Virus record (IMG/VR): IMGVR_UViG_3300049846_002600
Span: 1 to 49,617 of that record
DNA: 49,617 nucleotides
Direction: 5' to 3' (one strand)
Source: a virus
Both the position numbers and the translations under genes were made by a program. Under the pieces are notes generated by a model that had not been told where the DNA came from, ran no database searches, and saw nothing but the letters and a program-made list of their open reading frames with translations. This document shows positions 4,259-35,892 of this stretch, one piece after another. Position 1 is the first letter of the stretch. Every line of letters begins with the position of its first letter.

Positions 4259-4930
4259 ATGGCAAAAATATTAGGCACGGCGATCACTCCTATCGATGAT
4301 TTAAATTATTTTCCGGGCAATGCCAAAAAGCACGACATCGGCAAAATAATTGAATCTATTTTGCTGCATGGCTTTTTCCAGACGGTTTTGGTTTGCAAGC
4401 GGATGGACGTGGTGTTGGGTGGCAATGGTCGCCTAGAGTCGCTAATTTGGCTTAAACAGAATCCCTCCGATGCTGAAAACATGGCGAGGGAACTCAAAGC
4501 CCGATACGGCGCAAATACTGAGATCAACTACCCGCCCAATGGCATCACAGTTAAAAAAAACGATTGGTTAATCAACACTCTGGAGGTAGAAACAATCTCT
4601 GATGCTGAGGCGATCGCCATTAACCTACAGGATAATTTTTCTGTCTTGGATGGTGGCGACTTTACGGCACTGGATAAAACTAGGGCGTTTGATGTTGATG
4701 CTTTGCTGGCTCAGTTGGAATCATTGCAAGAGTCGAATTTTCTACCCGCCAGTGTTGATGAGGATGACCTTGAGTTAATGCTTAGGGAGCTGGAAGAACG
4801 GAAAGCGGTTGATGATTTGGGGTGGGAGGATGAACCTGAATCATCGACAAAAGAAATTGATACAGATGCGTTTGAATTTGACTGTGAATGTCCTAAGTGC
4901 GGGTTTCAGTTTACTAAGATAACCAAATGA
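4259..4930 (+). CDS. ParB/sulfiredoxin-like domain protein with C-terminal zinc knuckle
   Basis: Residues ~1-90 have the ParB-like nucleotide-binding fold: a hydrophobic stretch then VVLGGNGRLESLIWL (around 51-65), equivalent to the G-x-R box of ParB proteins. The C-terminus carries C-x-C-P-x-x-C (about 209-214), a partial zinc ribbon. Such ParB-domain proteins are common in phages beside DNA methyltransferases and may act as targeting adaptors or nucleases rather than in partition. Its stop overlaps the start of the downstream C5 methyltransferase (ATGA), so the two are translated together. Partition is unlikely because no ParA is present. Confidence 0.75.
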   Translation: MAKILGTAITPIDDLNYFPGNAKKHDIGKIIESILLHGFFQTVLVCKRMDVVLGGNGRLESLIWLKQNPSDAENMARELKARYGANTEINYPPNGITVKKNDWLINTLEVETISDAEAIAINLQDNFSVLDGGDFTALDKTRAFDVDALLAQLESLQESNFLPASVDEDDLELMLRELEERKAVDDLGWEDEPESSTKEIDTDAFEFDCECPKCGFQFTKITK

Positions 4931-5973
4931 CAAATCCTCATGCGTGGTTTCTTTCTGACCTTGAAAAGATTCCTAAAAACGGATTGAAAGTGATGTCTAC
5001 TTTTGCCTGTGGAGGCGGGAGTACGATGGGCTATAAATTAGTAGGTTGTGAAGTGATCGCCGCTAATGACATCGATCCTGAAATGGCATATCACTACAAA
5101 CTGAATCACAACCCTAAATATTATTTTCTCTGTCCTATTCGGGATTTGCTGACAAAAGAATTGCCTGATGAATTGTTTCATTTGGATATTTTAGACGGCA
5201 GCCCTCCATGCTCTACTTTTTCTATGGCAGGCAGTCGGGAAAAAGCATGGGGCAAAAACAAAAAATTCAGGGAAGGTCAAGCAACGCAAGTATTGTCTGA
5301 TTTATTTTTTGATTATCTGGATTTAGTTGAACATTTAAATCCCAAGGTGGCGATCGCCGAAAATGTCAAAGGCATGATTCAGGGCAACGCCAAAGGCTAC
5401 GTAAAAATGGTCATGGCACGGTTTAAAGAAATTGGTTATCGTTGCCAATTATTCCTAGTCAATGCCGCTGATTGTGGTGTGCCTCAGAAGCGGGAGCGAG
5501 TATTTTTTGTTGCGTTGCGTGATGACATTGATAAGCCCAAATTAGTATTAGCTCCTAAGCATAGATGGATTAGTGCGGGTGAGGCGACTAGCGATTTACA
5601 GGTTTTGACGGATGATGAGATTAGGGATACTAAACCAGCTAAAGAAGGTTTGATTTATTGGGGAAAAACGAGACAAGGTGATTCTTTTGCTCAAACAAAA
5701 CAAAGATTAAAAGAAAAAGCAGGTAGCTTTTCTAGGATTAGAATTAATGGAGAAATGCCATCCGCTACTTTGCTAGGGGGGGGGGATGCCGACTTATATC
5801 ATTGGAAAGAATGTCGCAATTTAACCTACAAAGAATGGAAACGCCTTGGTTCATTCCCCGACGACTACCAAGCCAAAACCGACAAGATAGGAAAATATAT
5901 GATAGGGATGAGTGTACCGCCTAAAATGACGTATGAAGTAGCAAAGGTAGTCATTGAACAGTGGCTAAATTAA
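4927..5973 (+). CDS. DNA (cytosine-5) methyltransferase
   Basis: All core C5-MTase motifs can be read: motif I ACGGGSTMGYKL (~28-38), catalytic GSPPCSTFS (Cys ~95), motif VI AENVKG (~145-149), motif VIII QKRERVFFVA (~187-196), and motif X GMSVPPKM near the C-terminus. It methylates cytosine at carbon 5 in a sequence given by its unknown target-recognition region. The motif IV is PCS instead of the usual PCQ, a known variation. The coding sequence includes ten consecutive G at 5776-5785 encoding three glycines, a possible slippage site. Translationally coupled to the ParB-like gene. Confidence 0.92.
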   Translation: MTNPHAWFLSDLEKIPKNGLKVMSTFACGGGSTMGYKLVGCEVIAANDIDPEMAYHYKLNHNPKYYFLCPIRDLLTKELPDELFHLDILDGSPPCSTFSMAGSREKAWGKNKKFREGQATQVLSDLFFDYLDLVEHLNPKVAIAENVKGMIQGNAKGYVKMVMARFKEIGYRCQLFLVNAADCGVPQKRERVFFVALRDDIDKPKLVLAPKHRWISAGEATSDLQVLTDDEIRDTKPAKEGLIYWGKTRQGDSFAQTKQRLKEKAGSFSRIRINGEMPSATLLGGGDADLYHWKECRNLTYKEWKRLGSFPDDYQAKTDKIGKYMIGMSVPPKMTYEVAKVVIEQWLN

Positions 5974-7775: not shown

Positions 7776-8915
7776 ATGAGTGCCAAAGATTTAGCCCAAT
7801 CCAAAAAATTAGAAAGTCAAGCGGCGCGGGTCGATAAGGCGATCGCCCGTAACACTGAACAGCAGACAGAATTAGCGCCGACTATTTTTGAGGGACATGA
7901 CCCGAATACAGGCACAAGCAAGATCCGCAAAATTGGCGGTAATCCTGTCATTGGCGGCGATCGCATTACGCACGGCACACCACAAGAAGGTGATTTAGTT
8001 TTATCTCGTCCGACTCAGGGAAAAACACGGGTAGACAAAAGATCTCCCCGGCATACTTCCATTGAGTGCGGTGGCACGGGCGCACCTAACCCAAGACTAA
8101 GGGGGACGGGTATCCCTGGTGGGCAGGGTGATGATCCTTTAATAAATGATGTGATAGATAATCCCCCGGCAAAAGTCCCCACTGGAAGATTTAATGAGCG
8201 CTGTGTGGGTTTTGCTTTGGTCTATGAAGAATACACCGGGGCGGTAGATGAGGCAGGAAACTTTACTACCCGCACTGTGACGGTTCCAAACTCACCTCAA
8301 TGTACGTCAAAAGTTAAGCCCTTTTCTCCCCTTAGTCCAAATGATAATGGCTGTTATCGTCCATCGGCAAACGTCAATAATCGCTGCCAATGGTTTGATG
8401 TGGCAACGGAGGCTGATGCGATCGCCGGAACCGGAACGCCAGAGGGAATGATTTATACTGGCTATATTGAGTATCCAGAAGCGTCATTTCGTATCATGGC
8501 TTGCGTGGAAAATGGAGCAGCCCCAGTGGAGGGGATTGGGTGCGGATGGCGACCAGAGAATCAACCGGAACCCCAAGTCCAGACGGGGACAATTATTAGG
8601 CTATTAGTAAGATTCCCGCCTAGCGTCGTTTATCACTGTGGGATTGTTCTCAGGACAAATGTTTCTTTTGTACGGGAGATCAACCCAACTAATCCAGCAT
8701 ACAACGTCGCTTATTATCAACATCCGAGATATCCAAATTTACCTACATCAGGATGTAGTGATCCATTGCCATTTTTTACCTACTTTGGAATTTTTGACAT
8801 AACTACTGAATGGCATATGCTGTTTGATTCTGATCAAGGGCAATTTTCAATACGGGTAGCCAGCAACAATACTTTTCCATTCAATAGCGTAACTTTTGAA
8901 CCTTATTACGATTAG
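7776..8915 (+). CDS. Orphan 379-aa protein, possible virion/tail-tip or host-recognition protein
   Basis: Not recognised. The N-terminal ~40 residues are a charged helix, then a Gly/Pro/Arg-rich segment (~50-130, for example IRKIGGNPVIGGDRITHG) resembling the OB-fold/hub-associated segments of baseplate-type proteins. The C-terminal ~240 residues are beta-rich with at least eight cysteines (for example NNRCQWF and GCGWRPENQ) and many aromatics, as in secreted or virion-exposed domains. It is monocistronic between a terminator and another gene, on the plus strand away from other structural genes. A tail-spike-like or exported role is inferred. Confidence 0.5.
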   Translation: MSAKDLAQSKKLESQAARVDKAIARNTEQQTELAPTIFEGHDPNTGTSKIRKIGGNPVIGGDRITHGTPQEGDLVLSRPTQGKTRVDKRSPRHTSIECGGTGAPNPRLRGTGIPGGQGDDPLINDVIDNPPAKVPTGRFNERCVGFALVYEEYTGAVDEAGNFTTRTVTVPNSPQCTSKVKPFSPLSPNDNGCYRPSANVNNRCQWFDVATEADAIAGTGTPEGMIYTGYIEYPEASFRIMACVENGAAPVEGIGCGWRPENQPEPQVQTGTIIRLLVRFPPSVVYHCGIVLRTNVSFVREINPTNPAYNVAYYQHPRYPNLPTSGCSDPLPFFTYFGIFDITTEWHMLFDSDQGQFSIRVASNNTFPFNSVTFEPYYD

Positions 8916-9320: not shown

Positions 9321-9353
9321 AAAATCCCCGGCGCTGAGATGGTCGGGGATTTT
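9321..9353. terminator. Bidirectional terminator
   Basis: AAAATCCCCG (9321-9330) pairs perfectly with CGGGGATTTT (9344-9353); A/T arms give a T-run on both strands. It separates convergent genes ending at 9301 (plus) and 9352 (minus). Confidence 0.9.
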
Positions 9354-9555
9354 ATTTTGCATGTTGTCTAATGTGCCGTTCTAGCCATTCCGATGCGGAT
9401 AGATCGGCGGCGATCGCCATATCCTCCACAGACTTTTTTACCTCAGGACTTAGCCAATATTTAGCCTGGATCTTAACTCCATCTCTAAACCTTGGGCGAC
9501 CAACGGATCGATTCTTTGGACAGCCTGAAGTACCGCGTTCCAATTCGCTGCACAC
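9352..9555 (-). CDS. Ribbon-helix-helix-like DNA-binding protein, ~67 aa
   Basis: The C-terminal half, GRPRFRDGVKIQAKYWLSPE then VKKSVEDMAIAADLSASEWLERHI, has the pattern of a ribbon-helix-helix or similar small repressor: a short basic strand then two helices. The frame is open up to 9660, but that region is coding in another frame for the HTH-like gene. A GTG at 9555 preceded by GGAAGGA is a likely start; other starts (TTG 9543, ATG 9660) are possible. It overlaps the neighbour's 3' end by about 106 nt, which is unusual. Probably regulates the divergent operon. Confidence 0.55.
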   Translation of the reverse strand: MCSELERGTSGCPKNRSVGRPRFRDGVKIQAKYWLSPEVKKSVEDMAIAADLSASEWLERHIRQHAK

Positions 9556-9710
9556 ATCTTCCTTCCCTGCGTCCACTGCTCCGCCGTCCTGGACGGGATA
9601 GGAACAGGCAGACTGCCCAACGTCTTGATTAGCAGATTGGGCGGGATCGTTCTTAGGCATGAGTTCAAAGCGTCTCTTAGCGTCATATTTCTCTCTATTA
9701 TCAATGACAC
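9450..9710 (-). CDS. Small HTH-like regulator, 86 aa
   Basis: Helical sequence TLRDALNSCLRTIPPNLLIK then TAEQWTQGRKMCAANWNAVLQAV looks like a helix-turn-helix or Cro-like fold in which AEQWTQGRK would be the recognition helix region. An alternative ATG is M9 (9686). Its 5' side faces a palindromic operator region shared with the divergent plus-strand operon, the usual arrangement for an autoregulated phage repressor. Its 3' end is overlapped in another frame by the ribbon-helix-helix-like gene. Confidence 0.6.
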   Translation of the reverse strand: MSLIIERNMTLRDALNSCLRTIPPNLLIKTLGSLPVPIPSRTAEQWTQGRKMCAANWNAVLQAVQRIDPLVAQGLEMELRSRLNIG

Positions 9711-9722
9711 TTTTATTGTATT

Positions 9723-9776
9723 AATTTCCAGTACCGATAATTATACTCTACTAGAGTATTTACAGTACCGGAAATT
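9723..9776. promoter_or_regulatory. Symmetric operator region between divergent genes
   Basis: Nested symmetry: outer arms AATTTCC (9723-9729) and GGAAATT (9770-9776); two direct copies of CAGTACCG (9729-9736 and 9763-9770); and a central perfect palindrome ATACTCTA-C-TAGAGTAT (9743-9759). A possible rightward promoter TTGTAT (9716-9721) with TAATTA (9738-9743) overlaps it. This is a textbook layout for repression by the adjacent regulator(s). Confidence 0.75.
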
Positions 9777-9799
9777 CAAATTACATTGAAGGTGTTCAG

Positions 9800-10192
9800 T
9801 TGAACGTTCACTTGAAAAACGATTTGCGTTCACCAATGCACACATACACATTAAAAAGCTGGTCAGTGGAAGGAGAAAAACGATGGAAGTCTAGCGAAGC
9901 CCGGATCTTGTCCGGCGTTCAGAACCGGGGAACATGGAACGATTACCTTATCTCCATTGGTCTTCCCACCGGGGAAAACAGCCCAGTTCTGACAATGACG
10001 GATCTCATCTGGGTACAAGTGGCGAAACTTTGGATGGGGCAAAATGCCAGAAAGTCCAAAGTCAGCACACATCAAACATTTCGCATTTTGCGATGGCATA
10101 AAGACTGGAAGCTTGACGACTTCCTTGATTACCTAAACACCGACTTGCTAACAATTACTTCAGAATTACAGAGAAAAATTAATCATGGCTAA
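9800..10192 (+). CDS. First gene of the membrane/ATPase operon, 130 aa, unknown
   Basis: TTG is taken as start because GAAGG lies ~7 nt upstream; the first ATG is M13 (9836) and lacks a ribosome-binding site. The protein is soluble with a C-terminal helical region (LDDFLDYLNTDLLTITSELQ). A segment SSEARILSGVQNRGTWNDYL suggests nucleic-acid or partner binding, but no family is recognised. It overlaps the next gene by 8 nt. Confidence 0.6.
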   Translation: MNVHLKNDLRSPMHTYTLKSWSVEGEKRWKSSEARILSGVQNRGTWNDYLISIGLPTGENSPVLTMTDLIWVQVAKLWMGQNARKSKVSTHQTFRILRWHKDWKLDDFLDYLNTDLLTITSELQRKINHG

Positions 10193-10664
10193 AGACTTTA
10201 ACAAAGACATTCAAGACGCGGTTAGCGCAACTGCTGGCAAAGGTTTTGGTGACGTGCCCAAGACTGAAAAGACACAAGAACCCAAACCGCAATCCAGTGC
10301 AATGACCACGGCTACAGATTCACTCCAAGACAAAGCGGCTAAATCTGCTCAACAGTTGGCGCTCGTCGAAACTGAAGCCCAACGCGCATCTATCAACAAA
10401 GGGTTTAAGAACGGGCAACAAGAAGCCATGACTGAAACACTTGCGGAAGGTGCGGGTTACTTAGGGGCAAAAGCACAGCTTAAGGCGATTTCTGTTGAAC
10501 AGCGTATTCGTGGGGTGGAAAAAATTCGCCAGGATGCACAAACTCAATTGGCGGCGGAAGTGGAGGCGCTTCAAATTGATGGCGATGACATTGACCCTTT
10601 GGCTCGACTCTCCGGACTTACCGGGGACAATCACGGGCTATTATTGCCCTCGCCTTTTGCTTAG
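10185..10664 (+). CDS. Ala/Gln-rich helical protein, 159 aa
   Basis: Nearly all helical, rich in A, K, Q and E, with a long amphipathic stretch around residues 40-135 that may form a coiled coil. No signal peptide or membrane segment. Tightly packed in the operon, so it may be a scaffold-like or periplasm-independent soluble partner of the membrane complex. Family unknown. Confidence 0.6.
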   Translation: MAKDFNKDIQDAVSATAGKGFGDVPKTEKTQEPKPQSSAMTTATDSLQDKAAKSAQQLALVETEAQRASINKGFKNGQQEAMTETLAEGAGYLGAKAQLKAISVEQRIRGVEKIRQDAQTQLAAEVEALQIDGDDIDPLARLSGLTGDNHGLLLPSPFA

Positions 10665-10717
10665 AACATCAACAAAATCAAATCGACAAACTCACCGAGG
10701 AAAGGACGGACAAAAGC

Positions 10718-10822
10718 ATGGATTGGATGACTGTTGGAATTGTGGCGATCGCCGTTGGGATTTTAGTCGCGCCCCCCGTGGGGTTGCTGGCAGGGGGGAT
10801 TGTCGCTTGCTTAAACGATTAA
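10718..10822 (+). CDS. 34-aa hydrophobic small membrane protein
   Basis: A very short gene reading MDWMTVGIVAIAVGILV followed by APPVGLLAGGIVACL: a single transmembrane helix with a proline break and glycine-rich second half, and almost no soluble part. GAGGAAAGGA lies 10-15 nt upstream of the ATG. It overlaps the TTG start of the next gene by 16 nt. Size and composition fit a pilin-like subunit, coat protein-like subunit or small membrane adaptor; none can be proven. Confidence 0.45.
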   Translation: MDWMTVGIVAIAVGILVAPPVGLLAGGIVACLND

Positions 10823-11208
10823 GAATCACCCCGGTTCAGTGGGTAGGCGCTGGCATTTTGACTCTCACTTTTTGGGTGGGAGTCCCCCGAATAAATGACG
10901 TAGTGGAAACGTTAGCCAATCAAAAAATAGATAACCTACTCGCGTTCCACACCATTGAAAAGACTGATGAAAATGTCGCCATGACCCGTCGGATCTATCA
11001 GCACTATCAGGACATGGCTAAATACGGTTTTGTAATTGGCAGTGCCGTGACAGGAGTTTCGGCGGTAGCCATGTCCATGGTATTTGGCGATAGATTCTCC
11101 AGTATGACCCTCACTCAAAAACGCCAATTTGCAGAAACCCTATTGGCAGAAATCGAACAAATCGAACTTGAAAAGCAAGTGATGGAGGCACTTAAACTAA
11201 AGCCATGA
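10807..11208 (+). CDS. Two-pass membrane protein, 133 aa
   Basis: The start is TTG 10807 with AGGGGGG about 9 nt upstream; open sequence further upstream overlaps other genes and reads as non-protein-like. Transmembrane helices at ~10-26 (VQWVGAGILTLTFWVGV) and ~73-94 (YGFVIGSAVTGVSAVAMSMVFG), then a charged coiled-coil-like tail ending in LLAEIEQIELEKQVMEALKL. It overlaps the next gene by 4 nt (ATGATGA). Probably an inner-membrane component of the operon's complex. Confidence 0.6.
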   Translation: MLKRLRITPVQWVGAGILTLTFWVGVPRINDVVETLANQKIDNLLAFHTIEKTDENVAMTRRIYQHYQDMAKYGFVIGSAVTGVSAVAMSMVFGDRFSSMTLTQKRQFAETLLAEIEQIELEKQVMEALKLKP

Positions 11209-11948
11209 TGACACCCATTGAAGGATACACGCCCGATATTGACGATACGGACGAACCGACAACCAAAAAAGTCAGCACTGGATTCTCCCTTGAGAATTTC
11301 AGCACACGCCAAAAAGTAGGCGCTGGGCTTGTCGGGATTGGGATTATTTGGTGGTTGGCAACGGGTAGCGGCGGCGGTCAAGTCACAGGCGTAACCAATG
11401 CCTTCAATCCGAAGTTGTCGGAACAGGCGATCGCCCAAAGCGAAGACCCTAACCAAGCATCGTTTTACCTCAAAGCGGCGCAACTTCAATCAGGATTAAT
11501 TCAGGCACAAGCCGAACAGTTTTTGGGGTTTGCGGTTCAATATCAAAACACTCCAAATCATTACTGCAATGGCAAGGTGTTATCTACTTGCCTCCGTTCT
11601 TTTCAGCAAGCCCGTGAATCCGAAATGATGGCGTTGTACTTGGATGAGTCGAGCTTGGGAACCAAGGATCTTTACTCTCGCGTAGGCACTCTCAACTTTG
11701 AGATTCTGTCTATCGAGGTGGCGATCGCCCAACTCGACAAACAACCCGACGCAGCAACGCAATCATTCTTGAATACGGTGATTCAGTTCCCTGAAATCAA
11801 AACCCCACAAGTTGCCAGCTATATTGAGGCAGCAAAAGCCCATCGTCATCAGCAACAAATGATGGAAGCAACCGAGAGGGAAAAACTTTCTAGCCAAGCT
11901 TCCACACAAAAAACAGATGAATGCACACCGGGGGAGCCATGTTTTTAA
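11205..11948 (+). CDS. Single-pass membrane protein with tetratrico-like helical domain, 247 aa
   Basis: An acidic N-terminal cytoplasmic segment (1-35), one membrane helix (VGAGLVGIGIIWWLATG, ~38-54), and a ~190-residue helical domain, probably periplasmic, with regularly spaced Ala/Gln helices and two cysteines (HYCNGKVLSTC) that could form a disulphide. This topology resembles bitopic scaffold proteins of secretion or conjugation channels. No family recognised. Confidence 0.6.
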   Translation: MMTPIEGYTPDIDDTDEPTTKKVSTGFSLENFSTRQKVGAGLVGIGIIWWLATGSGGGQVTGVTNAFNPKLSEQAIAQSEDPNQASFYLKAAQLQSGLIQAQAEQFLGFAVQYQNTPNHYCNGKVLSTCLRSFQQARESEMMALYLDESSLGTKDLYSRVGTLNFEILSIEVAIAQLDKQPDAATQSFLNTVIQFPEIKTPQVASYIEAAKAHRHQQQMMEATEREKLSSQASTQKTDECTPGEPCF

Positions 11949-13063
11949 GCAAAAATCTTCTCCCTAATGCTTTAACTGTTGTTGGTGTCCTGCTCCTAAT
12001 TAATGAAATTCAATCGGCTCAATTAATCAAAGTTGCAGAGGCGCGGGTAAACTCATCCACCGGACAAGTGGGCATTGCAGAACAAAAGCGCGGCGGGAAT
12101 CCCATTAATATGATCGGTGCTTTAGGTGCGATTTATTTGGGATTCACTAACCGAGGCGAGGATGTAGAACTTACTGTTGACTCCCCTTTACCATCAGTGG
12201 AAGTGGAGTCAACCCCGGATATCGCCGCGCCCATCTATCAACCTATCCCGATGACAAAAATCAAGGCGAAAAAATCAGTTGACCTAATTCAGCAGATTGT
12301 TAATTATGACCGCTCGATTTTAATGTCCGCTGTGACGGGATGCGGGAAAACTACTCTGCTCCGAGCTTGCCTAACTACCATCTGGGAACAGTCGGGAAAG
12401 ACGGCGGCGTTTGTGGTGATTGACCCCAAACACTCAACCTACGGGATTGAAAAAACCAACCCCATCAAAGAAGGATTACCCATTGTTAGTCACCCTAGCA
12501 CCGCCGAAGATTGCACGATGATTCTGCTGTTGGTGGAATGGTTACTCGATAAATTTTTGGTCGGACGGCAAAAGGATCGTCAACGGGCGGAACAGTCCAA
12601 CAAGGAATACAACCCCGCGCCGCTTTATATTGTGTTCGATGAATGGGTGGCACTCCAAACCAAAATGAAATCCCGACTATCCAAACAAGACTATGACAAG
12701 TTCAATAACATGGTTCAGGAACTCATTGTCATGGGACGCGAAGATCGGGTGAGGGTGTGGTTAGTTGGTCAATCCCATCAATGCGGACAGATTGGCTTAT
12801 CTGGTTCTATCCGTGACAACCTTGGACTGATTGGATTAGCCGCACCAAACGATTGCACTTCTATCGATGCTATGGCAGCGGATAGCTACTTATTCAAGAA
12901 TGCAGTGGATAGAGAATCTATCGCAAATGCCGCCGCTAAATTACGGGGCACTCGTTTTTACTTATCAACATTGGGTGTATCACCTGTCATCAATCAAACT
13001 CCAAACATCACCAAAAAATTAACCGCTACTGACCCTTGGGAGAATACCGAAAATGCAGTTTAA
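11939..13063 (+). CDS. FtsK/HerA-superfamily ATPase with N-terminal membrane segments, ~374 aa
   Basis: ATG 11939 is chosen because GGGGGAG lies 2-3 nt before it; an in-frame ATG at 11921 is less well placed. Two hydrophobic segments (~11-22 and ~55-70) precede the ATPase core. Walker A is SAVTGCGKTTLL (~130-141), Walker B LYIVFDEW (~229-236), and VWLVGQSHQ (~273-281) fits the conserved Gln-bearing strand of FtsK/HerA/VirD4-type motors. These motors pump DNA through membranes or into capsids. The membrane anchor plus neighbouring membrane proteins and hydrolases suggest a translocation or coupling ATPase. It is too short for true FtsK and has no gamma domain. Confidence 0.75.
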   Translation: MFLSKNLLPNALTVVGVLLLINEIQSAQLIKVAEARVNSSTGQVGIAEQKRGGNPINMIGALGAIYLGFTNRGEDVELTVDSPLPSVEVESTPDIAAPIYQPIPMTKIKAKKSVDLIQQIVNYDRSILMSAVTGCGKTTLLRACLTTIWEQSGKTAAFVVIDPKHSTYGIEKTNPIKEGLPIVSHPSTAEDCTMILLLVEWLLDKFLVGRQKDRQRAEQSNKEYNPAPLYIVFDEWVALQTKMKSRLSKQDYDKFNNMVQELIVMGREDRVRVWLVGQSHQCGQIGLSGSIRDNLGLIGLAAPNDCTSIDAMAADSYLFKNAVDRESIANAAAKLRGTRFYLSTLGVSPVINQTPNITKKLTATDPWENTENAV

Positions 13064-13298
13064 CTTTGACCTCAAAAATACGATTTACACCATCGGCATT
13101 TTAAGCCTAGTCAGCATTATTTTGATGCACATTGCAGGATACAGAAATAGCCAACTAGGAATATTTCATGAGGCAATTGATTTTGTTGCTAATACGGCGG
13201 CGGGATTCATTACCCAGGAAAAAGAAATTGACATGGGGCAGTGGGAAAAAATTACGCCCGATGATGCCACTGGTGGCACAGACCAAGAGGGACAATGA
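13053..13298 (+). CDS. Single-pass membrane protein, 81 aa
   Basis: One N-terminal membrane helix (TIYTIGILSLVSIILMHIAG, ~10-29) followed by a ~50-residue acidic tail. Overlaps the ATPase gene and the next gene, so it is part of one translational unit. Function unknown; probably an accessory subunit. Confidence 0.6.
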   Translation: MQFNFDLKNTIYTIGILSLVSIILMHIAGYRNSQLGIFHEAIDFVANTAAGFITQEKEIDMGQWEKITPDDATGGTDQEGQ

Positions 13299-13711
13299 AG
13301 CCCTATGAATCGCTGGCAATTATTGGGGTGAATAGCTTACTGTTTGCCTCAATCGTTACCGCCCACCAACCCCGACAAATTAATACAGATATTTTTGGTC
13401 AGACGTGGGGGTCAGTCGAGTGGGGATGGGCAAGGCTTGACGGGGCGATCGCCGCCGCTAACGACAAAGCAAAAGCACGGTTAAATCAAATTGAAAAAGA
13501 AACCCCGGTTGCCCAAGTTTGTTCCCCAGAATTTGAACCCATCGCATTAAGTGACGCGACAAGTTTGCCCGAACCCCGAACAATAGAAAAAGTCATCAAA
13601 GAATTAGGGCAACCATGCCTTTCTGATGGAGAGAAAATTTATTATGCAACCGATACAGGACAATCAATCTTTTTCGACAAATCGACAGGCAAAGGCGGCT
13701 TTCAAGAATAG
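13295..13711 (+). CDS. Exported or membrane-anchored protein, 138 aa
   Basis: An N-terminal hydrophobic segment (SLAIIGVNSLLFASIVTA) looks like a signal anchor. The mature part carries two Cys and a C-terminal beta-rich segment (DGEKIYYATDTGQSIFFD) reminiscent of small periplasmic BamE/SmpA-like folds, which is only an impression. It overlaps the M23 peptidase gene by 68 nt. Confidence 0.55.
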   Translation: MKPYESLAIIGVNSLLFASIVTAHQPRQINTDIFGQTWGSVEWGWARLDGAIAAANDKAKARLNQIEKETPVAQVCSPEFEPIALSDATSLPEPRTIEKVIKELGQPCLSDGEKIYYATDTGQSIFFDKSTGKGGFQE

Positions 13712-14501
13712 CTCTGCCCTCGTACATCAACCTGGACAGCCGGGGATTTTGCAGGAACCTGAATTTGTTAGACAAGCGCCGCCGCCAATTAATATTCCTC
13801 AAATTCCACAAATCAAAATATCCCTAATTGACGCTGAAAGTTTATTGGGAACCGTGGCGATCCTTTCAACTTTAGCAGTGCCTATTGTATGGGGAATAAC
13901 ACCTATTAATAATTTGGCTAGGGGATTTTTCAAGGTAACTGAAACCGCCGCCCGATATACTCAGGAAACATTCGGCAACCTTGGATTCACGCCTAAGCCA
14001 GGGGACAAAATTAATGGCTACACCGTAACGTCTGGTTATGGCGATCGCCCTGCCCCTTGTGCGGGCTGTTCAACTTTTCACCCAGCAATTGATATTGGCA
14101 CACCCATCGGAACCCCTGTATATATTCCAGCCCGTCCTCAGAATGATTTTGCCAAGGACAAAGGCGAGACAGTTTTAATCCAGTGCCGTCAACCAAATCA
14201 AACAGGCGGCGGCGGGTTAGTGGCTGAAATCCTGCTACCAGAACGGGGCATCATTTACCAAGCTTTGCACCTCTCAAAATGCTCCGATAAACTCATGGGC
14301 GGTGGTCATCAGTTTGGGGAAAGTGGAAATTCTGGCGTAGGCACAGGTGCTCACCTCGACTTAAGAAAGGCGACTACTACCGCCAAAAACTTTAGTGAGT
14401 TAAGCCGCCCATTAAATCATGAGCCGATTACCACCTATGAAGCATGGTGGTTTTTAACTGGCGTAGCTCCTAAACCCGATGCACCGAAGGAGGCAAAATA
14501 A
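13644..14501 (+). CDS. Membrane-anchored M23-family peptidase, 285 aa
   Basis: ATG 13644 is preferred over 13626 because GGAGAG precedes it at good spacing. A Pro-rich cytoplasmic N-terminus, one membrane helix (~68-86), then an M23 (LytM-like) domain: zinc-binding TFHPAID (His ~146, Asp ~150), catalytic-type LHLSK (His ~209) and GTGAHLDLR (~234-241). In most M23 enzymes the last motif is H-x-H; here it is H-L-D, so the third zinc ligand is replaced by Asp and activity may be altered or lost. It should cleave peptidoglycan cross-bridges, opening a path through the wall. Confidence 0.8.
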   Translation: MQPIQDNQSFSTNRQAKAAFKNSSALVHQPGQPGILQEPEFVRQAPPPINIPQIPQIKISLIDAESLLGTVAILSTLAVPIVWGITPINNLARGFFKVTETAARYTQETFGNLGFTPKPGDKINGYTVTSGYGDRPAPCAGCSTFHPAIDIGTPIGTPVYIPARPQNDFAKDKGETVLIQCRQPNQTGGGGLVAEILLPERGIIYQALHLSKCSDKLMGGGHQFGESGNSGVGTGAHLDLRKATTTAKNFSELSRPLNHEPITTYEAWWFLTGVAPKPDAPKEAK

Positions 14502-14502
14502 T

Positions 14503-15045
14503 ATGTGGCAAGCATCTATTTCTGTGTGGGTATTAGTTTTATTTTTCTCGACTTACACCACTGGCAACGCAGAATATTCGCAACCAATATCAACTTCCTC
14601 ATCTGCCGAAACCACAACACAATTTATTGCAAAGCTAGAGGGATTTTCTCCTACTGCATATTGGGACGTAAATGCCTATCGGATCGGATATGGATCGGAC
14701 ACTATCACCTATCCCGATGGCAGGATCGAAAAAGTCACCAAGGATAGCACTGTTACCAAGGAATTAGCCGCGCTCGATCTATCGCGTCGAGCAAAAGAAT
14801 TTGAGTCTGTAGCAGATAAGCAGATCGGGGATATTGACGCATTACCAGAGTCTGCACAAGTGGCATTAACATCTGTCGCCTACAACTATGGCAGTCTTCC
14901 TAAATCAGTGGTAGAAGCCGCAAAAACTCAAGATCCTAACTTAATCGCTAATGCCATTGAGTCATTGCACACTCAAGATAATGGCATTAATGCCCATCGC
15001 AGAAAAGCGGAGGCGAATTTCATTCGGGGGATAACAGATGAATGA
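14503..15045 (+). CDS. Secreted GH24-type lysozyme, 180 aa
   Basis: The ATG at 14503 has GAAGGAGG upstream and starts a typical signal peptide (ISVWVLVLFFSTYTTGNA). The enzyme domain begins at ~38: catalytic Glu in AKLEGFS (~46), Asp in AYWDVN (~55) and the YRIGYGS block (~59-65). In T4 lysozyme the equivalent of Arg60 is the catalytic Thr26, so this is a variant active site. It hydrolyses the glycan chain of peptidoglycan. Being exported through Sec, it does not need a classical holin. Coupled to M23 peptidase upstream. Confidence 0.85.
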   Translation: MWQASISVWVLVLFFSTYTTGNAEYSQPISTSSSAETTTQFIAKLEGFSPTAYWDVNAYRIGYGSDTITYPDGRIEKVTKDSTVTKELAALDLSRRAKEFESVADKQIGDIDALPESAQVALTSVAYNYGSLPKSVVEAAKTQDPNLIANAIESLHTQDNGINAHRRKAEANFIRGITDE

Positions 15046-15634
15046 CAAAGCAAAAACCGGAATCCCTGGCAAGTGGACTGATGACGAGATTGACTTATTG
15101 ATTGAAGTCCTAGAAAAATCAAACGGTGCTAACTTCAATGAAGTCTATGACAAAGAGCGCAAAAAATACGGGTTCCCTGCTCGGTCAAAAACAGCCATCC
15201 GGAAGAAACGAACAAAGCTTAAACGCAGGGCTTATCCCATCACAGATAATTTCACCATGGCATCCCTTGCCGATTATTTAGGACTACCAAGACACGCCCC
15301 CTGGCAATGGCAAAGACATGGGTTAAAAACAAAGAAAGTCGGGCGGTTTAAAATCATTACTCGAAAGAATTTAAGGCTATTTGCCCATGAGCATCCCTTC
15401 TGTTTTAAGAGAGTTGAGATTGATATTCTGGAAGATATTTTTGATGATGAATTAATCGAAAAAATTCAACAGTCTCACCGCGCTTATGCCCCTGTGCAAG
15501 TAAAGTGGAACCCACCTGATGGGAAGTCTCAAGTATTCTCATCCTTAAGAAAAGCCGCGAAAGAAACGCATTACGCCATCGGGACTGTCGGATGGCACAT
15601 AAAAAACAACACCGGATTATTTGAAAAAATATGA
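15038..15634 (+). CDS. SANT/Myb-like DNA-binding protein, 198 aa
   Basis: The N-terminal region GKWTDDEIDLLIEVLEKS (about 11-28) followed by SKTAIRKKRTKL matches a SANT/Myb-like trihelical domain; a second HTH-like segment is TMASLADYLGLPRHAPWQWQ. The C-terminal FSSLRKAAKETHYAIGTVGWHIK (~169-191) resembles NUMOD1-type DNA-recognition repeats of homing endonucleases, but there is no nuclease motif. Probably a transcription factor or DNA-targeting protein linked to the RusA-like resolvase, whose gene it overlaps by 4 nt. Confidence 0.65.
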   Translation: MNDKAKTGIPGKWTDDEIDLLIEVLEKSNGANFNEVYDKERKKYGFPARSKTAIRKKRTKLKRRAYPITDNFTMASLADYLGLPRHAPWQWQRHGLKTKKVGRFKIITRKNLRLFAHEHPFCFKRVEIDILEDIFDDELIEKIQQSHRAYAPVQVKWNPPDGKSQVFSSLRKAAKETHYAIGTVGWHIKNNTGLFEKI

Positions 15635-16152
15635 TTGCTGATACCCCGAAGAAATTAACGTCAAAAAAAGAGGCGATCACCCTTGCTGAAAAATACCGAT
15701 GCGCCCATCGATACACGCCTTTAGTTTTGCCTGTGCCAACATCTAAAAATAATTTACGTTGGCATGGTCGATATCGTAGTGGGCATACTTCTGATTACAG
15801 CAATTTTAGGCAAGAAGTACGCCATCGGTTTGCACTATGGAAAAAGCAAAACCCAACATTTGAGCCGTTCCATGGGAACCGTCGGTTATTGGTTTTGACC
15901 TTTGATTATCAGTTAGTCACTGAAGACGCGACTCACGATTTGGCGAATTTTTCTCAGGCATTATTAGACTCGCTTAGTGGGGGGAAAGACAAAGGGCGGA
16001 TCGTCCCTCCATTAGCTTGGTATGACGATCGCCCTATTAATTTACACCTTCAAATCCCAGACAATTTAGATGACATGATCGATCCAATAAATCCCCACTG
16101 CAAACTATTTTTAAATCCCACAAAAATATCGGTTTGCTCTTTAAAAAAATAG
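15631..16152 (+). CDS. RusA-like Holliday-junction resolvase, 173 aa
   Basis: The VPTSKNNLRW segment (~35-44) fits RusA's N-terminal V-P-x-x-K-x-R/N pattern, and HDLANFSQALLDSLSG (~102-117) matches the D-x-D-N...LLDAL block, with WYDDRPINLHL (~130-140) as the terminal acidic strand. RusA family proteins resolve four-way DNA junctions during phage recombination and packaging. The second Asp of D-x-D-N is Ala here, so catalysis may rely on the remaining acidic residues. Last gene of the plus-strand operon, convergent with a fibre gene that ends one base later. Confidence 0.7.
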   Translation: MIADTPKKLTSKKEAITLAEKYRCAHRYTPLVLPVPTSKNNLRWHGRYRSGHTSDYSNFRQEVRHRFALWKKQNPTFEPFHGNRRLLVLTFDYQLVTEDATHDLANFSQALLDSLSGGKDKGRIVPPLAWYDDRPINLHLQIPDNLDDMIDPINPHCKLFLNPTKISVCSLKK

Positions 16153-25814: not shown

Positions 25815-26204
25815 TTAAAACCCGTTATTTTCAATTTTAGACTGTGCAACATCCCACGCGTGAGACATCAAAATAGCGTAAGTTTTTGCTTGATTCTCAT
25901 CAATGTCATCAATGAAGATCAGGTGAATATCATCTTCAATGTCACACTCAACAAAAAAATCATAGCCGCCGTCTCTGGCGATCGCCTGGACAGATCCGCT
26001 TTCATTGATGATGTTCATGATTAATTGTCGATTTGCTGCATCTTTAAACCGCATCCATTCAGCTAAAACATTGTCAATGTCCCAATAAAAATAGGTAATG
26101 GCACAAAAACCAAAACACAATCTAGCCGATGTCTTCCCTTTGAATACGTAAAAACCGCCCCATTTTCCAAAAGAAAAAACGATACTTCCACTAATGTTTT
26201 TCAT
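25815..26204 (-). CDS. Hypothetical protein, ~129 aa
   Basis: Start is ATG 26204 (a TTG 18 nt upstream is possible). The gene starts inside the end of the C5 methyltransferase gene (14-nt overlap), implying coupling. The N-terminal half is Gly/Phe-rich and may be beta, with an acidic segment ECDIEDDIHLIFIDDIDENQ. No family recognised; possibly a cofactor of the methyltransferase or simply co-expressed. Confidence 0.5.
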   Translation of the reverse strand: MKNISGSIVFSFGKWGGFYVFKGKTSARLCFGFCAITYFYWDIDNVLAEWMRFKDAANRQLIMNIINESGSVQAIARDGGYDFFVECDIEDDIHLIFIDDIDENQAKTYAILMSHAWDVAQSKIENNGF

Positions 26205-27159
26205 AATTAATTGTTGCCTCAATAATTTTTTGCATCATTAGCGGCGGCACTGAGTTGCCGATAATTGTTCCGGCTAATGCTTTTTTGCTAGGGAACTTGT
26301 ACCAATCGGGGAATGATTGAAGACGCGCCGCCATTTCAATTGTAGATAATCCTGTCAGCCCATAAGCAAACCATCGAAACTTCCACCAATGCTCGTCGGA
26401 CAAAGCTCGAATAGTCCAGATAGGTTCATAGTGCAATGCAGTAATCGCTTTACGAAGGCTGGGCTTACCGATCGTTTCAAGAGCAAGAATCCCCCCTTCT
26501 GTAATACCTCGCTGTGTATCGTGTGGAAGGAATGAAATATCTACTGAATCCCAAGTTGGAATATCTCCTTTTAAATACAGCCCGTCTTGGTCAAATGGAA
26601 GTAAATTAACTATCGCCTCATACCAGCCAACCCAACCACATCCTGAATGATTAAATACGTCAAAATCCCATCGGTAGTCGCCACGATAAGCAACTAAAAA
26701 TAATCTTTCTCTAGATTGTGGGACACTGTAATTCATGGCATTTATCACCTCAGTATTACAGTGATATCCGTTAACGTTTAGAGCATTAACAATAATATGA
26801 AAAGCGACGCTACCACGATAAGCCCGGACATTTTCAAGAGAAAAATATTCAGGCTTTAACACCTCGATAAACTCAGCAACTTTACGCGCCAATTTAATAT
26901 CATTGTCTTTTTCTCCTTTTTTGGCATTAGCGGCGCTAAAACTTTGGCACGGGGGTGACGCATGAATCCAGTCGGGGCGATCTAAACTTGCGGGGTCAGC
27001 GTCAAGAATATCAATGTTGTGACAAGTGCCAATGTTTTGACGGCACACTTCAGCAATATTTGGATTTTGTTCAATCCCCCAAAGATGGGTTAGTTCGGCG
27101 GCGATCGCGCCCAAATCCGCACCACCTCCACCAGAAAACAATGAGGCGAAAGTTTTCAT
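26191..27159 (-). CDS. DNA (cytosine-5) methyltransferase, 322 aa
   Basis: ATG 27159 follows GAGGA by 6 nt. Full C5-MTase signature: motif I FASLFSGGGGADLGA (~4-18), catalytic ASPPCQSFSAANA (Cys ~71), motif VI LENVRAYRG, motif VIII QSRERLFLVAYRGD, and IIGNSVPP near the C-terminus. Unlike the other C5 enzyme in this window it has the usual PCQ. It overlaps the small upstream gene by one base (TGATG), so both are coupled. Sequence specificity unknown. Likely anti-restriction or regulatory. Confidence 0.92.
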   Translation of the reverse strand: MKTFASLFSGGGGADLGAIAAELTHLWGIEQNPNIAEVCRQNIGTCHNIDILDADPASLDRPDWIHASPPCQSFSAANAKKGEKDNDIKLARKVAEFIEVLKPEYFSLENVRAYRGSVAFHIIVNALNVNGYHCNTEVINAMNYSVPQSRERLFLVAYRGDYRWDFDVFNHSGCGWVGWYEAIVNLLPFDQDGLYLKGDIPTWDSVDISFLPHDTQRGITEGGILALETIGKPSLRKAITALHYEPIWTIRALSDEHWWKFRWFAYGLTGLSTIEMAARLQSFPDWYKFPSKKALAGTIIGNSVPPLMMQKIIEATINYEKH

Positions 27160-27299
27160 CACACGTCCTCAAACATTCGATCAATAGGTGTTCCTTGTTC
27201 CTGCAAGTTACTCCCAGTTGATCTGTCGAACTGCTGAACAAGCTCTTCATTAGCCAATGCAGTTAACAGGCACATATCAAAAAGCGACAAATCATTCAC
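27159..27299 (-). CDS. 46-aa protein upstream of C5 methyltransferase
   Basis: GTG start at 27299 overlaps the stop of the upstream gene (GTGA), and its own TGA overlaps the ATG of the methyltransferase (TGATG). The frame reads NDLSLFDMCLLTALANEELV and ends IDRMFEDV. The double stop/start overlap strongly suggests a real, translationally coupled gene. No motif. Confidence 0.55.
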   Translation of the reverse strand: MNDLSLFDMCLLTALANEELVQQFDRSTGSNLQEQGTPIDRMFEDV

Positions 27300-28193: not shown

Positions 28194-28339
28194 GAATAAT
28201 TTTATTCACCAAGAGATTTATGGGAACCTGTGACAAGCGCTTGTCCATCGGCTGCATTCTCCCACTCTTCAATCTGTGGCTGGTGACTGCCTTAGAGATT
28301 ATATCGGAATCAACGTTTAATACCCCATGGATTATTAAA
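28194..28339. other. No clear gene
   Basis: Between the terminator and the tRNA I see no convincing gene. On the minus strand a short frame without a start reads like a C-terminal fragment (LVTGSHKSLGE at its end), ending at about 28213, which may be a relic. I see no other structure. Confidence 0.3.
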
Positions 28340-28411
28340 TGGCAGGAGATGGGATTGAACCATCGACCCCAGGGGTATGAACCCTGTGAGCTACCACTGC
28401 TCTATCCTGCT
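28340..28411 (-). tRNA. Initiator-type tRNA(Met), anticodon CAU
   Basis: A complete cloverleaf: acceptor AGCAGGA/TCCTGCC, D-stem GAGC/GCTC, anticodon stem CAGGG/CCCTG with loop TTCATAC, T-arm GATGG-TTCAATC-CCATC, discriminator A. Three features mark it as an initiator: an A1-C72 mismatch, three G:C pairs (GGG/CCC) at the base of the anticodon loop, and purine A11 paired with T24. CCA is not encoded. It is transcribed leftward, 12 nt from the upstream minus-strand HTH gene. Confidence 0.85.
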
Positions 28412-28423
28412 AAAAATATTTTA

Positions 28424-33627: not shown

Positions 33628-34539
33628 ATGATTAGTATATTACAAGATGTCTCAAATTACCACCAAATCTGCATAAGAGATTTGATTGAGACTGATAAAG
33701 AAGTTTTACGCCCATTTCTCCCAGCGACCAGGGCAATGAAAATTACATTACTTGCCACTACTGTCCGGTATCTGGACTTGTTGGTCGCCCGGTATGGTTC
33801 CTTGGAACAGGCGATCGCCGCCGGGGAGAGTGGCGAGGCATTCATCGCCCAGGCGGTACGGGGTCGGGATAACCAGCACGGCGGCATGGTGGGCTGGGTT
33901 AAGAGGTTTTTTCCCGGCGCTGCATTCAGTAATCCCAAGGTGGTAGAAGCCCGAAACGTTTTGGAAGCTATGGGCATTATCGTTCACGAATCTAACGGAC
34001 GGGGGAATGTGGGATTTACAAGGATCAATGTCATGCGCCTCATGGTGTTGCAAATTTTACTGGAAGATGAACTGGGCTACGCCACACAGACGGAAGACGA
34101 TGACAATGAACTAGATCCGCCTGAGTTAGATGCCATGGGTAGAGTTAGCCCCTATGCGAGACTAAAGAAAAAGATCCGTAACCGAGAAGCTGCCAAAGCC
34201 GCACGGGCTGAGAATCCAGATATTGAAGCAGCGCCCCCCATGGCACGGATTAACAAGGAACGGTGGCAGAGTGTATTTGGGTTTAATCCACGGGTGAAAA
34301 GCCCCGACTATCAGTACCCGGCGGACATTGAAGATTTTCTACAAGAAGCATGGGGACAGATCGCCACAATCGCCCAGCCGCTGAGAGGCATTCCCCAGAG
34401 ACTTTGGAATGAGACTGAGCAGTTCTGTATTAAACGTTTCGAGCAATATTACAAAGCCAGTAAGGATGCTGTGAAAAAAGTATGGGCGATCATTGAGCCT
34501 TACGAGTCAGACGGGCTAGACGAAATCCCGTTTGATTAA
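33628..34539 (+). CDS. Probable replication/recombination protein with SSB-like C-terminal tip, 303 aa
   Basis: A helical N-terminal domain (residues ~1-150), a basic linker (LKKKIRNREAAKAARA), and a C-terminal domain ending GLDEIPFD. The acidic-hydrophobic tip is like bacterial SSB (D-x-I-P-F) and the phage SSB in this window ends LDDVPF, suggesting a shared partner such as the helicase. Preceded by a complex leader, hence tightly regulated. It may be a replication initiator or helicase loader, but no family motif is certain. Confidence 0.5.
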   Translation: MISILQDVSNYHQICIRDLIETDKEVLRPFLPATRAMKITLLATTVRYLDLLVARYGSLEQAIAAGESGEAFIAQAVRGRDNQHGGMVGWVKRFFPGAAFSNPKVVEARNVLEAMGIIVHESNGRGNVGFTRINVMRLMVLQILLEDELGYATQTEDDDNELDPPELDAMGRVSPYARLKKKIRNREAAKAARAENPDIEAAPPMARINKERWQSVFGFNPRVKSPDYQYPADIEDFLQEAWGQIATIAQPLRGIPQRLWNETEQFCIKRFEQYYKASKDAVKKVWAIIEPYESDGLDEIPFD

Positions 34540-35012
34540 TTCTCAGATTTCTCATGGGACGGCGGCGTAACTTGTGGAGGGACGCTAGTTTTGTTGACTT
34601 GCTGCCAGCCTAAATAAGCCAGCAGCAAAAGCCACCCTGCGCCCTGAGCGAGCCAACCGAATCCGATGCCAAACAATCCATCCGCCACCCTTTCGGCTTG
34701 CTTGTCGCGTCGAGATTGCTCCGCCTCGACCCATGCTTTGACATCTCTAAGCTCCAAGTTCATTTCATCTTGACGCTTATGGAATGCCCTCATGGCATCT
34801 TTTAATGTGCGGATTTCGCCTGTTTCAAGGCTCAATGAAATCATCTTTTTTTCTGTCTCAGCTAAGGATGATTGCATCTCTTTTAATGATTTTTGTATGT
34901 CTTCAATTGTATTTCTCAAGCCTTTTGTATGCTCCTCTGTCCGGATCGCATTATCCTGCACAAATCGAAGCGTTCGCAAGATCTCCGTCCCCATGTCCAG
35001 ATTATCTGGCAT
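34536..35012 (-). CDS. Coiled-coil membrane protein (XhlA-like holin?), 158 aa
   Basis: A long amphipathic coiled coil (~1-110: IRTEEHTKGLRNTIEDIQKS and onward) followed by one or two C-terminal membrane helices (LFGIGFGWLAQGAGWLLLLA, ~112-132) and a polar tail. This is the organisation of the XhlA-type proteins beside lysis genes. A holin role is inferred; the lysozyme of this phage has a Sec signal. Overlaps the next gene and converges with the 303-aa gene. Confidence 0.6.
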   Translation of the reverse strand: MPDNLDMGTEILRTLRFVQDNAIRTEEHTKGLRNTIEDIQKSLKEMQSSLAETEKKMISLSLETGEIRTLKDAMRAFHKRQDEMNLELRDVKAWVEAEQSRRDKQAERVADGLFGIGFGWLAQGAGWLLLLAYLGWQQVNKTSVPPQVTPPSHEKSEN

Positions 35013-35763
35013 CGTTATTTCCCTCCCTGAGTTCCTGTAACCCCTTGGTTATCAGTTGATTATTGATAGCTTTAAGCCGTTTATTTTCATCTGTCAGTGA
35101 TTTGATTTTATCCTGAGTCTCCGTGTCATCATGGAACTGAATCAAATAAGTTTGACTTTCGTAATCAAGGGGAACAATTCGCCATTTGAACCAAATTTTT
35201 TTTTCTTCCCAATAGGTGACTTGATCTGTGAATATTTTGTGAGTCACGGCACAAGCTTGGTTGTTAAGCTTCCAGTCCTGTCGATGGGAAATGACATCCC
35301 ACCAATTGACACCGGGTTTTAAGTCTTCTTTAGTCGCCAATTCACGCATCACGAACCAATCGATCATGGCTTGGTCAAGCGACACAATTAAGCTCGTATT
35401 GAAGTCAACAAATTTTAAAATTACTTCTGGCACTAATGAATATTTATCCCGTAACGTAACCAATTGTTTAGCCGCTTCCAGCTCATTTTGATAGGCGATC
35501 TCCTTATTCAATGTCCAGGGATTCCATAGCGCCGCTGCTACAACGCCAACTAATGACGGCGCGACCAATGACAATTCCCTAACATGATCAAGGGGGTAGA
35601 ACAGCAATGAAATGTAATGGGATTCACAGGATGGGAAGATAATGGCGATCGCCCAAATAACCACCGCCGTAAACCTAGGCGGCTTTTTTGTGAGCGCCCA
35701 TATTGATGCGATGGCGATTTCTGAATAACAGAGAATCAAAATATAAAGAAGGTGTTGGCGCAT
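35002..35763 (-). CDS. Membrane protein with PAS-like cytoplasmic part, 253 aa
   Basis: ATG 35763 is used (a TTG 9 nt upstream is possible). About three membrane segments in the first ~85 residues, then a helical linker, then a region (~130-215; DWFVMRELATKEDLKPGVNW, HRQDWKLNNQACA, WFKWRIVPLDYESQTYLIQF) with a PAS-like alternation of helices and strands, and a C-terminal coiled coil. Such architecture suggests a membrane sensor or partner for the XhlA-like protein it overlaps. Fold assignment is tentative. Confidence 0.5.
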   Translation of the reverse strand: MRQHLLYILILCYSEIAIASIWALTKKPPRFTAVVIWAIAIIFPSCESHYISLLFYPLDHVRELSLVAPSLVGVVAAALWNPWTLNKEIAYQNELEAAKQLVTLRDKYSLVPEVILKFVDFNTSLIVSLDQAMIDWFVMRELATKEDLKPGVNWWDVISHRQDWKLNNQACAVTHKIFTDQVTYWEEKKIWFKWRIVPLDYESQTYLIQFHDDTETQDKIKSLTDENKRLKAINNQLITKGLQELREGNNDAR

Positions 35764-35823
35764 GATTCGCAAGGTGTTTTTTACATTTTCCTACATTTTT
35801 AATATTCCCTGTTTTTAAATAAG

Positions 35824-35884
35824 CAAAATTGCATTTTGTTGATTTTTGACACTTGATAACCTTACTATTGAAAAAAGAGTTAAG
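35824..35884 (+). promoter_or_regulatory. Promoter and operator of the 208-aa gene
   Basis: CAAAAT-TGC-ATTTTG inverted repeat (35824-35838); TTGATT (35839-35844), 18-nt spacer, TACTAT (35863-35868); AGAGTTAAG (35876-35884). It shares CATTTTGTTG with the promoter at 29102-29111. Confidence 0.65.
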
Positions 35885-35892
35885 GAAAAATC

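What the first reader, a model, noticed from the sequence alone, without database searches (positions are those of the whole stretch)
9800..16152. Operon with a membrane-anchored FtsK/HerA ATPase, membrane proteins and two wall hydrolases inside a tailed phage
Twelve overlapping plus-strand genes encode at least five membrane or exported proteins, a P-loop DNA-translocase-type ATPase (Walker A SAVTGCGKTT), an M23 peptidase, a secreted lysozyme, a SANT-like DNA-binding protein and a RusA-like resolvase. The ensemble resembles a conjugation/DNA-export or membrane-packaging module, not a lysis cassette. I know of no standard siphovirus module with this content. It has its own repressors and operator, suggesting it moves as a unit.
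Basis: partly seen in the sequence, partly recalled or inferred. Interest (0 to 1): 0.72.

Follow-up and report, generated by a model that had tools for sequence, protein, structure and literature searches.

The report
Phage-borne membrane DNA-pump operon
A tailed virus of cyanobacteria carries a twelve-gene operon built around a membrane-bound, FtsK-like motor with two cell-wall-enzyme homologues, and the same kit turns up in unrelated tailed phages and, in a looser form, on plasmids of filamentous cyanobacteria, which suggests a machine for moving DNA at or through the cell envelope.

Summary
Twelve tightly packed + strand genes (9800-16152) encode a membrane-anchored P-loop ATPase, at least six further TM or exported proteins, an M23-like and a lysozyme-like protein, and weak Myb-like and RusA-like proteins, inside an HK97-type tailed cyanophage. 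The ATPase core folds like TcpA (conjugation coupling ATPase) and FtsK; a relative passes Pfam's FtsK_SpoIIIE cut-off. The operon is not unique: the order small TM peptide - TM proteins - ATPase - exported protein - M23 - lysozyme recurs in a second tailed phage contig (L139), a cyanobacterial contig (L096) and, with a fused ATPase-TM-M23 protein, a contractile-tailed prophage (L121/L140). Looser versions occur in seven isolated Nostoc/Anabaena/Dolichospermum myophages and on plasmids of filamentous cyanobacteria. No relaxase or VirB4-like ATPase was found in the window or the two phage records. Best reading: a membrane dsDNA-translocase module coupled to peptidoglycan opening, working like TraB/TcpA/FtsK; whether it moves DNA between cells, segregates DNA or assists lysis is not settled. 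The window's M23 and lysozyme carry substitutions at catalytic or zinc positions. Single ATPases were already annotated 'DNA translocase FTSK'; I found no published description of the module.

The parts
9352..9660 (-). 102-aa divergent regulator candidate
   Evidence: no Pfam hit. Relatives have ribbon-helix-helix proteins in the same divergent place (L096 RHH_1 E 9.6e-8, L123 and L098 RHH_5).
9723..9776 (.). Operator-like region: two 19-nt half-sites around inverted repeat ATACTCTA-n-TAGAGTAT (9743-9759)
   Evidence: promoter-like match at 9759-9787 is not above chance.
9800..10192 (+). Gene 1, 130 aa, TTG start, putative DNA-binding protein
   Evidence: same place and size as L096 139 aa / L139 106 aa, no significant sequence match.
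10185..10664 (+). Gene 2, 159-aa soluble protein
   Evidence: position counterpart of the 148/178/208/244-aa family of L096, L139, L101, L123; resemblance by position only.
10718..10822 (+). Gene 3, 34-aa single-TM peptide
   Evidence: counterparts of 46-60 aa with TM and central proline in L096, L139, L121.
10807..11208 (+). Gene 4, 133-aa protein with two hydrophobic segments
   Evidence: position counterpart of the 134-138-aa proteins in L096, L139, L121.
11205..11948 (+). Gene 5, 247-aa Cys-containing protein with one weak TM
   Evidence: Sequence relative of the L121 286-aa protein (phmmer E<1e-3).
11921..13063 (+). Gene 6, membrane-anchored FtsK/HerA-type ATPase, 380 aa
   Evidence: Relative at E 2e-15; AF2 core 121-350; Foldseek TcpA/FtsK/EccC.
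13053..13298 (+). Gene 7, 81-aa one-TM protein
   Evidence: position counterpart of the 109-146-aa one-TM family.
13295..13711 (+). Gene 8, 138-aa exported or anchored protein
   Evidence: Weak profile match to the L096/L121/L139 153-164-aa family (E 0.015, same position).
13626..14501 (+). Gene 9, M23-peptidase-like protein with one TM (true start may lie downstream, e.g. 13644)
   Evidence: 34% identity to L096 M23 protein; alignment; HxxxD kept, HxH reads HLD.
14479..15045 (+). Gene 10, exported phage-lysozyme-like protein, 188 aa
   Evidence: Pfam Phage_lysozyme E 6.6e-9; catalytic Thr position reads Arg (alignment).
15038..15634 (+). Gene 11, 198-aa DNA-binding candidate (Myb-like N-terminus)
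   Evidence: Weak Pfam matches E 0.03-0.05.
15631..16152 (+). Gene 12, RusA-like resolvase candidate, 173 aa
   Evidence: PHROG RusA E 0.03; a RusA-like ORF also follows the ATPase in prophage L127 (weak).

Best explanation
The operon encodes an envelope machine. An FtsK/HerA-type ATPase anchored in the inner membrane, probably a hexamer, pumps double-stranded DNA; small TM proteins build or regulate the membrane part; exported proteins and the M23/lysozyme-type proteins bind or open the peptidoglycan at that spot; a divergent regulator switches the unit. Shown: gene content and order, their conservation, the ATPase fold class, the fusion of such an ATPase to M23 (through a TM) and of another to an HNH-like stretch, and the absence of two T4SS hallmarks in the window and phage records. 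Inferred: DNA as substrate, hexamer, pumping, local wall opening. Most likely use, inferred with low confidence: moving or placing phage/plasmid DNA across the septal membrane of filamentous hosts, as TraB does in Streptomyces mycelia.
For: Fold: TcpA, FtsK and EccC are among the best PDB matches. The L122 relative scores 30.5 bits against the FtsK_SpoIIIE cut-off of 24. ATPase-TM-M23 fusion, 534 aa, in L121/L140, with M23 E 1.4e-8. Synteny with M23 and lysozyme at the end in L096 and L139, in tailed phages with different portals, capsids and tails. The L122 ATPase has a C-terminal HNH-like stretch that links it by phmmer to the separate HNH protein of L139. Plasmid relatives are annotated as T4SS conjugative DNA-transfer ATPases, some next to ParM/ParG genes. 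Hosts: all 62 plasmid hits are in filamentous genera, while a plasmid Rep control also hits Synechococcus, Synechocystis, Acaryochloris and Geminocystis. Profile hits at E<=1e-20: 27 of 145 genomes in the Cylindrospermum family, 2 of 50 in the Synechocystis family, 0 of 146 in a small-genome family. FtsK-based dsDNA transfer in actinomycete mycelia is established (PMC3218068, PMC3158045).
Against: The window ATPase itself is below every Pfam cut-off, and its model rests on four sequences (mean pLDDT 55.6; TM-scores about 0.4; Rho, RecA and KaiC also match). No DNA-binding gamma-type domain is recognised. N1-type phages and plasmids show no wall hydrolase next to the ATPase in the stretches I read, so the wall step is not universal. 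The window's M23 and lysozyme may be inactive. No experiment bears on function.
Confidence: 0.5

Rival explanations
1. Lysis or egress cassette: the 34-60-aa TM peptide is a holin, M23 and lysozyme are the endolysins, and the ATPase with its TM proteins times or localises lysis in thick-walled, multicellular cyanobacteria.
For: Wall hydrolases lie at the end of the operon in L096, L139 and L121 and near its end in the window; PHROG calls both window proteins endolysin; no other lysozyme was found among the window ORFs tested.
Against: I know of no holin-endolysin system that uses a DNA-translocase ATPase (own knowledge). N1-type phages carry the ATPase module without adjacent hydrolases and have lysozymes elsewhere. 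Plasmids carry it. Window hydrolases have catalytic substitutions.
Confidence: 0.2
2. Segregation or anchoring system: the ATPase clears or positions plasmid/phage genomes at the septum, as FtsK does, so that low-copy DNA is inherited.
For: Plasmid copies follow ParM and lie near ParG-type genes (ParG also); RHH regulators upstream in others.
Against: Lytic Nostoc myophages, which do not need segregation, keep it; wall hydrolases and the M23 fusion are not needed for partition.
Confidence: 0.15
3. Protein secretion, superinfection exclusion or defence: an EccC-like or HerA-like ATPase exports a protein or destroys incoming DNA with the HNH partner.
For: EccC is a fold match and a weak NCBIfam hit; weak PADLOC mad8 hits; HNH-like fusion in L122 and HNH-like genes in L096, L139, L101, L123.
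Against: One ATPase domain only, no WXG100-type substrate recognised; PADLOC hits are weak and partial; no HNH protein was recognised in the window operon.
Confidence: 0.13

Closest known systems
TraB/Tra of Streptomyces plasmids and AICEs (FtsK-type dsDNA conjugation in mycelia; PMC3218068)
   Same: Membrane FtsK-like ATPase, no relaxase and no VirB4 found in the window and phage records, small membrane helpers, mostly filamentous multicellular hosts.
   Different: Cyanobacterial, carried by tailed phages, has wall hydrolases, M23 and HNH-like fusions; no clt site or transfer shown.
TcpA of pCW3 (clostridial conjugation coupling ATPase)
   Same: Best PDB fold match; N-terminal membrane anchor, single FtsK-like domain; a wall hydrolase in the same locus (own knowledge for pCW3).
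   Different: TcpA works with VirB4- and VirB6-like partners (own knowledge); no VirB4-like ATPase here.
'DNA translocase FTSK' of Anabaena phage A-1(L) and Nostoc phage YongM
   Same: Same broad family and gene layout; found through a fold match.
   Different: Too distant for tblastn from the window; no adjacent M23 or lysozyme; not described as a module in the papers I could read (PMC4916379, PMC8297451, PMC11356776).

Membership tests
FtsK/SpoIIIE-HerA ATPases | Walker A and B in a RecA-like core with FtsK-type fold | tested here: met
   Motifs in sequence; AF2 + Foldseek TcpA/FtsK prob 1.00, TM about 0.4, so class level only.
FtsK/SpoIIIE-HerA ATPases | Passes Pfam FtsK_SpoIIIE (PF01580) cut-off | tested here: not met
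   Window 11.4 bits < 24; relative L122 30.5 > 24.
FtsK/SpoIIIE-HerA ATPases | DNA binding and directional translocation | not testable with these tools
   Needs biochemistry.
Type IV secretion / classical conjugation | Relaxase | tested here: not met
   PF03432 absent in window, G646, G647; present in 2 of 3 plasmids tested. Only this relaxase family was tested.
Type IV secretion / classical conjugation | VirB4-like ATPase | tested here: not met
   PF19044: none over cut-off in 10 records; controls ring.
TraB-type dsDNA transfer (AICE) | FtsK-like membrane Tra protein without relaxase/T4SS | tested here: met
   by fold, a relative's Pfam match and absence of T4SS hallmarks, not by sequence membership in TraB.
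TraB-type dsDNA transfer (AICE) | Integrase and Rep in the same element | tested here: inconclusive
   XerC-like recombinase near L121, CyRepA1-like Rep near L122, by inspection; no integrase seen in the window record, which is linear and may be incomplete.
TraB-type dsDNA transfer (AICE) | cis-acting clt repeats and proven transfer | not tested
   No assay; no repeat search outside the operator.
Tectivirus/corticovirus packaging module | Double-jelly-roll capsid packaged by the ATPase | tested here: not met
   Phage has TerL and HK97-type MCP; no DJR candidate recognised, no structural screen done.
Phage lysis cassette | Endolysin with intact catalytic residues | tested here: inconclusive
   Lysozyme Thr position is Arg, M23 HxH is HLD; activity not assayed.
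Type VII secretion | Multi-domain EccC with WXG100 substrates | tested here: not met
   One ATPase domain in 380 aa; no WXG100 family in Pfam scans of ten operon proteins.

The most novel reading that the evidence does not exclude
Tailed cyanophages and plasmids share a TraB-like, T4SS-free DNA transfer machine that opens septal peptidoglycan and passes dsDNA from cell to cell along a cyanobacterial filament, letting phage genomes spread without virions.
Probability: 0.2. Interest if true: 0.88.

Novelty: new variant of a known kind. Interest (0 to 1): 0.6.

Why it matters
If the reading is right, phages of filamentous cyanobacteria carry a DNA-pumping envelope machine of a kind known, without a type IV secretion system, from Streptomyces mycelia. 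It would explain an unannotated gene block in classic laboratory phages (N-1, A-1(L)) and in many plasmids, offer a testable route for DNA spread along filaments, and give a fusion protein that ties a DNA-translocase-type ATPase to a wall peptidase.

Tried and rejected
Direct BLAST/tblastn of the ATPase in phages, plasmids, viral contigs and one scan of genome contigs found nothing. PDB sequence search gave only chance hits. I wrote a script that made substituted variants of the ATPase as a loose search pattern; I did not search with them and dropped alignment A1. A gapped DNA pattern gave no window match and was not run on collections. Composition first looked odd for the operon, but that was a strand effect; counted on both strands it ranks 98 of 174. 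The ATPase tree is unresolved and four rows were cut at the wrong domain, so I rely only on the 100/100 clade L120+L121a+L096+L139. AF2 of gene 8 gave no usable model. Considered and rejected: double-jelly-roll phage packaging, inovirus Zot, classical T4SS.
Full report
WHAT IS THERE. The window is an IMG/VR record of 49,617 bases without end repeats. It is a tailed phage: TerL, portal, head protease, HK97-type MCP, tape measure and tail fibres are recognised. HIP1 octamers (GCGATCGC) occur 51 times against 0.5 expected, which points to a cyanobacterial host. Two of its genes are hidden in the mechanical ORF list: a 34-aa single-TM peptide (10718-10822) and a 133-aa protein starting at TTG 10807 inside a longer open frame.

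THE ATPASE. Gene 6 (11921-13063) has SAVTGCGKTT, FVVIDPK, YIVFDEW and a GQSHQ motif after N-terminal hydrophobic segments. Direct sequence searches fail, and Pfam matches stay below cut-offs. The link was made in steps. A six-frame search of 386 cyanobacterial genomes found G206 at E 2e-15. A profile then found more. One of these (L122) passes Pfam FtsK_SpoIIIE, 30.5 against 24 bits. An AF2 model from the window sequence and three relatives gives a usable core, residues 121-350, within a poor whole (mean pLDDT 55.6). Foldseek places TcpA and FtsK at the top, EccC near, but also Rho, RecA and KaiC at similar E-values, so the class is supported and the exact subfamily is not. Against viral models the best hit is a Nodularia phage protein; rank 5 is an unnamed 525-aa protein that led me to the 525-aa N1 protein at 34424-36001. 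That identification rests on length and on the features then found in N1.

THE MODULE RECURS. L096 (contig of a cyanobacterial genome) has the same order: 139-aa, 148-aa, small TM peptide, 134-aa, 242-aa, ATPase 451 aa, 138-aa, 160-aa, M23 491 aa, an HNH-like protein and lysozyme 205 aa. ATPase, M23 and lysozyme match the window by phmmer at E 2e-19, 1e-18 and 1e-8. L139, a 73.7-kb IMG/VR contig with a portal (PHROG portal E 3.9e-84), has the same order again. L121, also found as IMG/VR prophage L140, lies in a prophage with TerL, portal, MCP and contractile-tail sheath; it has two ATPases, and the second is fused through a TM to an M23 domain (Pfam E 1.4e-8), followed by a lysozyme-like SLT_3 protein below cut-off. 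Profile work adds the window's 247-aa protein (to L121) and, weakly, its 138-aa protein (E 0.015). The remaining small genes agree only in position, size and topology. Conserved order in phages with different portals, heads and tails is the main argument that the set functions as one unit.

WIDER FAMILY. Related ATPases lie in prophages of G449 (TerL and tape measure nearby) and G511, in integrated elements with Rep or integrase genes (L122, L123, by inspection), and on 62 plasmids, all from filamentous genera; in two of the four plasmids I opened they follow ParM, with ParG or a similar small gene divergent. Seven isolated Nostoc, Anabaena and Dolichospermum myophages share the N1-type ATPase at 61-100% identity; two are annotated DNA translocase FTSK. 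In N1 the gene order is 169-aa, 200-aa (CUE/UBA-like), one-TM, two short genes, 2-TM, ATPase. The Nodularia phage kac65v151 has a relative, gp140.

HOST BIAS. At E<=1e-20, counted from the tables, the broad profile hits 27 of 145 genomes of the family of Cylindrospermum, 2 of 50 of the family of Synechocystis and 0 of 146 of a small-genome family. A Rep control on plasmids hits unicellular genera too. The bias is real in these data, but genome size, plasmid number and the origin of the query set confound it, and the two hits in the mostly unicellular family show it is not absolute.

NOT A T4SS. PF03432 relaxase and PF19044 (TraG/VirB4 P-loop) are absent from the window and the two phage records; two plasmids carry relaxases. 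Only these two families were searched.

REGULATION. Between the divergent 102-aa gene and gene 1 lie two 19-nt half-sites around a perfect 8+8 inverted repeat. Relatives carry ribbon-helix-helix genes in the same divergent position (by inspection in others).

WALL ENZYMES. The window M23 keeps HxxxD but reads HLD where relatives read HxH. The lysozyme has Arg where relatives have the catalytic Thr of the E-D-T set (alignment; assignment to T4 lysozyme positions is my own). Both may be inactive, structural, or altered in specificity.

MECHANISM. The fusion and the conserved linkage tie the ATPase to wall processing on the outer face of the membrane; the fold class ties it to DNA. A membrane pump for dsDNA with local wall opening is the simplest machine that uses both. 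Its biological use is open. Transfer between filament cells, by analogy with FtsK-type conjugation in actinomycetes (PMC3218068, PMC3158045), fits the host bias and the lack of T4SS; segregation fits the ParM neighbourhood; lysis fits the position of M23 and lysozyme. None is shown.

LITERATURE. PMC4916379 (phages N-1 and A-1) reports gene exchange with host plasmids and does not mention FtsK. PMC11356776 lists the YongM homologue among presumed essential genes, on comparative grounds. I found no description of the module, in an open-access library only.

Noticed in passing
L122:8695-10323 (+): ATPase with an HNH-like C-terminus (CCFPGCQNRATETHHAYY...PLCEEHH), linked by phmmer to the separate HNH-like protein of L139 (13857-14372).
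   Followed up: partly
L096:1582-1902 (-): Peptide MYKRQ suggests a sequencing-adapter remnant in contig G206:C65, so the join between its tail-fibre end and the module may be chimeric.
   Followed up: no
window 4927-5973 and 26191-27162: A C5 DNA methylase (Pfam E 1.5e-50) and a second methylase-like ORF, plus a methylase-like ORF at 26-622, in one phage.
   Followed up: no
window 7776-8915: 379-aa protein just upstream of the operon, no Pfam, PHROG or PADLOC match.
   Followed up: partly
window 28339-28412 (-): Lone tRNA-Met (CAT); Nodularia phage kac65v151 (MK605242) also carries a single annotated tRNA, tRNA-Met (CAT).
   Followed up: no
L121:12241-12888: SLT_3 lysozyme-like protein replaces the phage lysozyme at the end of the module.
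   Followed up: partly
L101:11367-12056: Repeated peptides GFSPLTGKRFER look like a translated CRISPR array next to the module.
   Followed up: no
L160, L161 (G659, G677): Two strong ATPase hits in the mostly unicellular Synechocystis family, exceptions to the filamentous bias.
   Followed up: no
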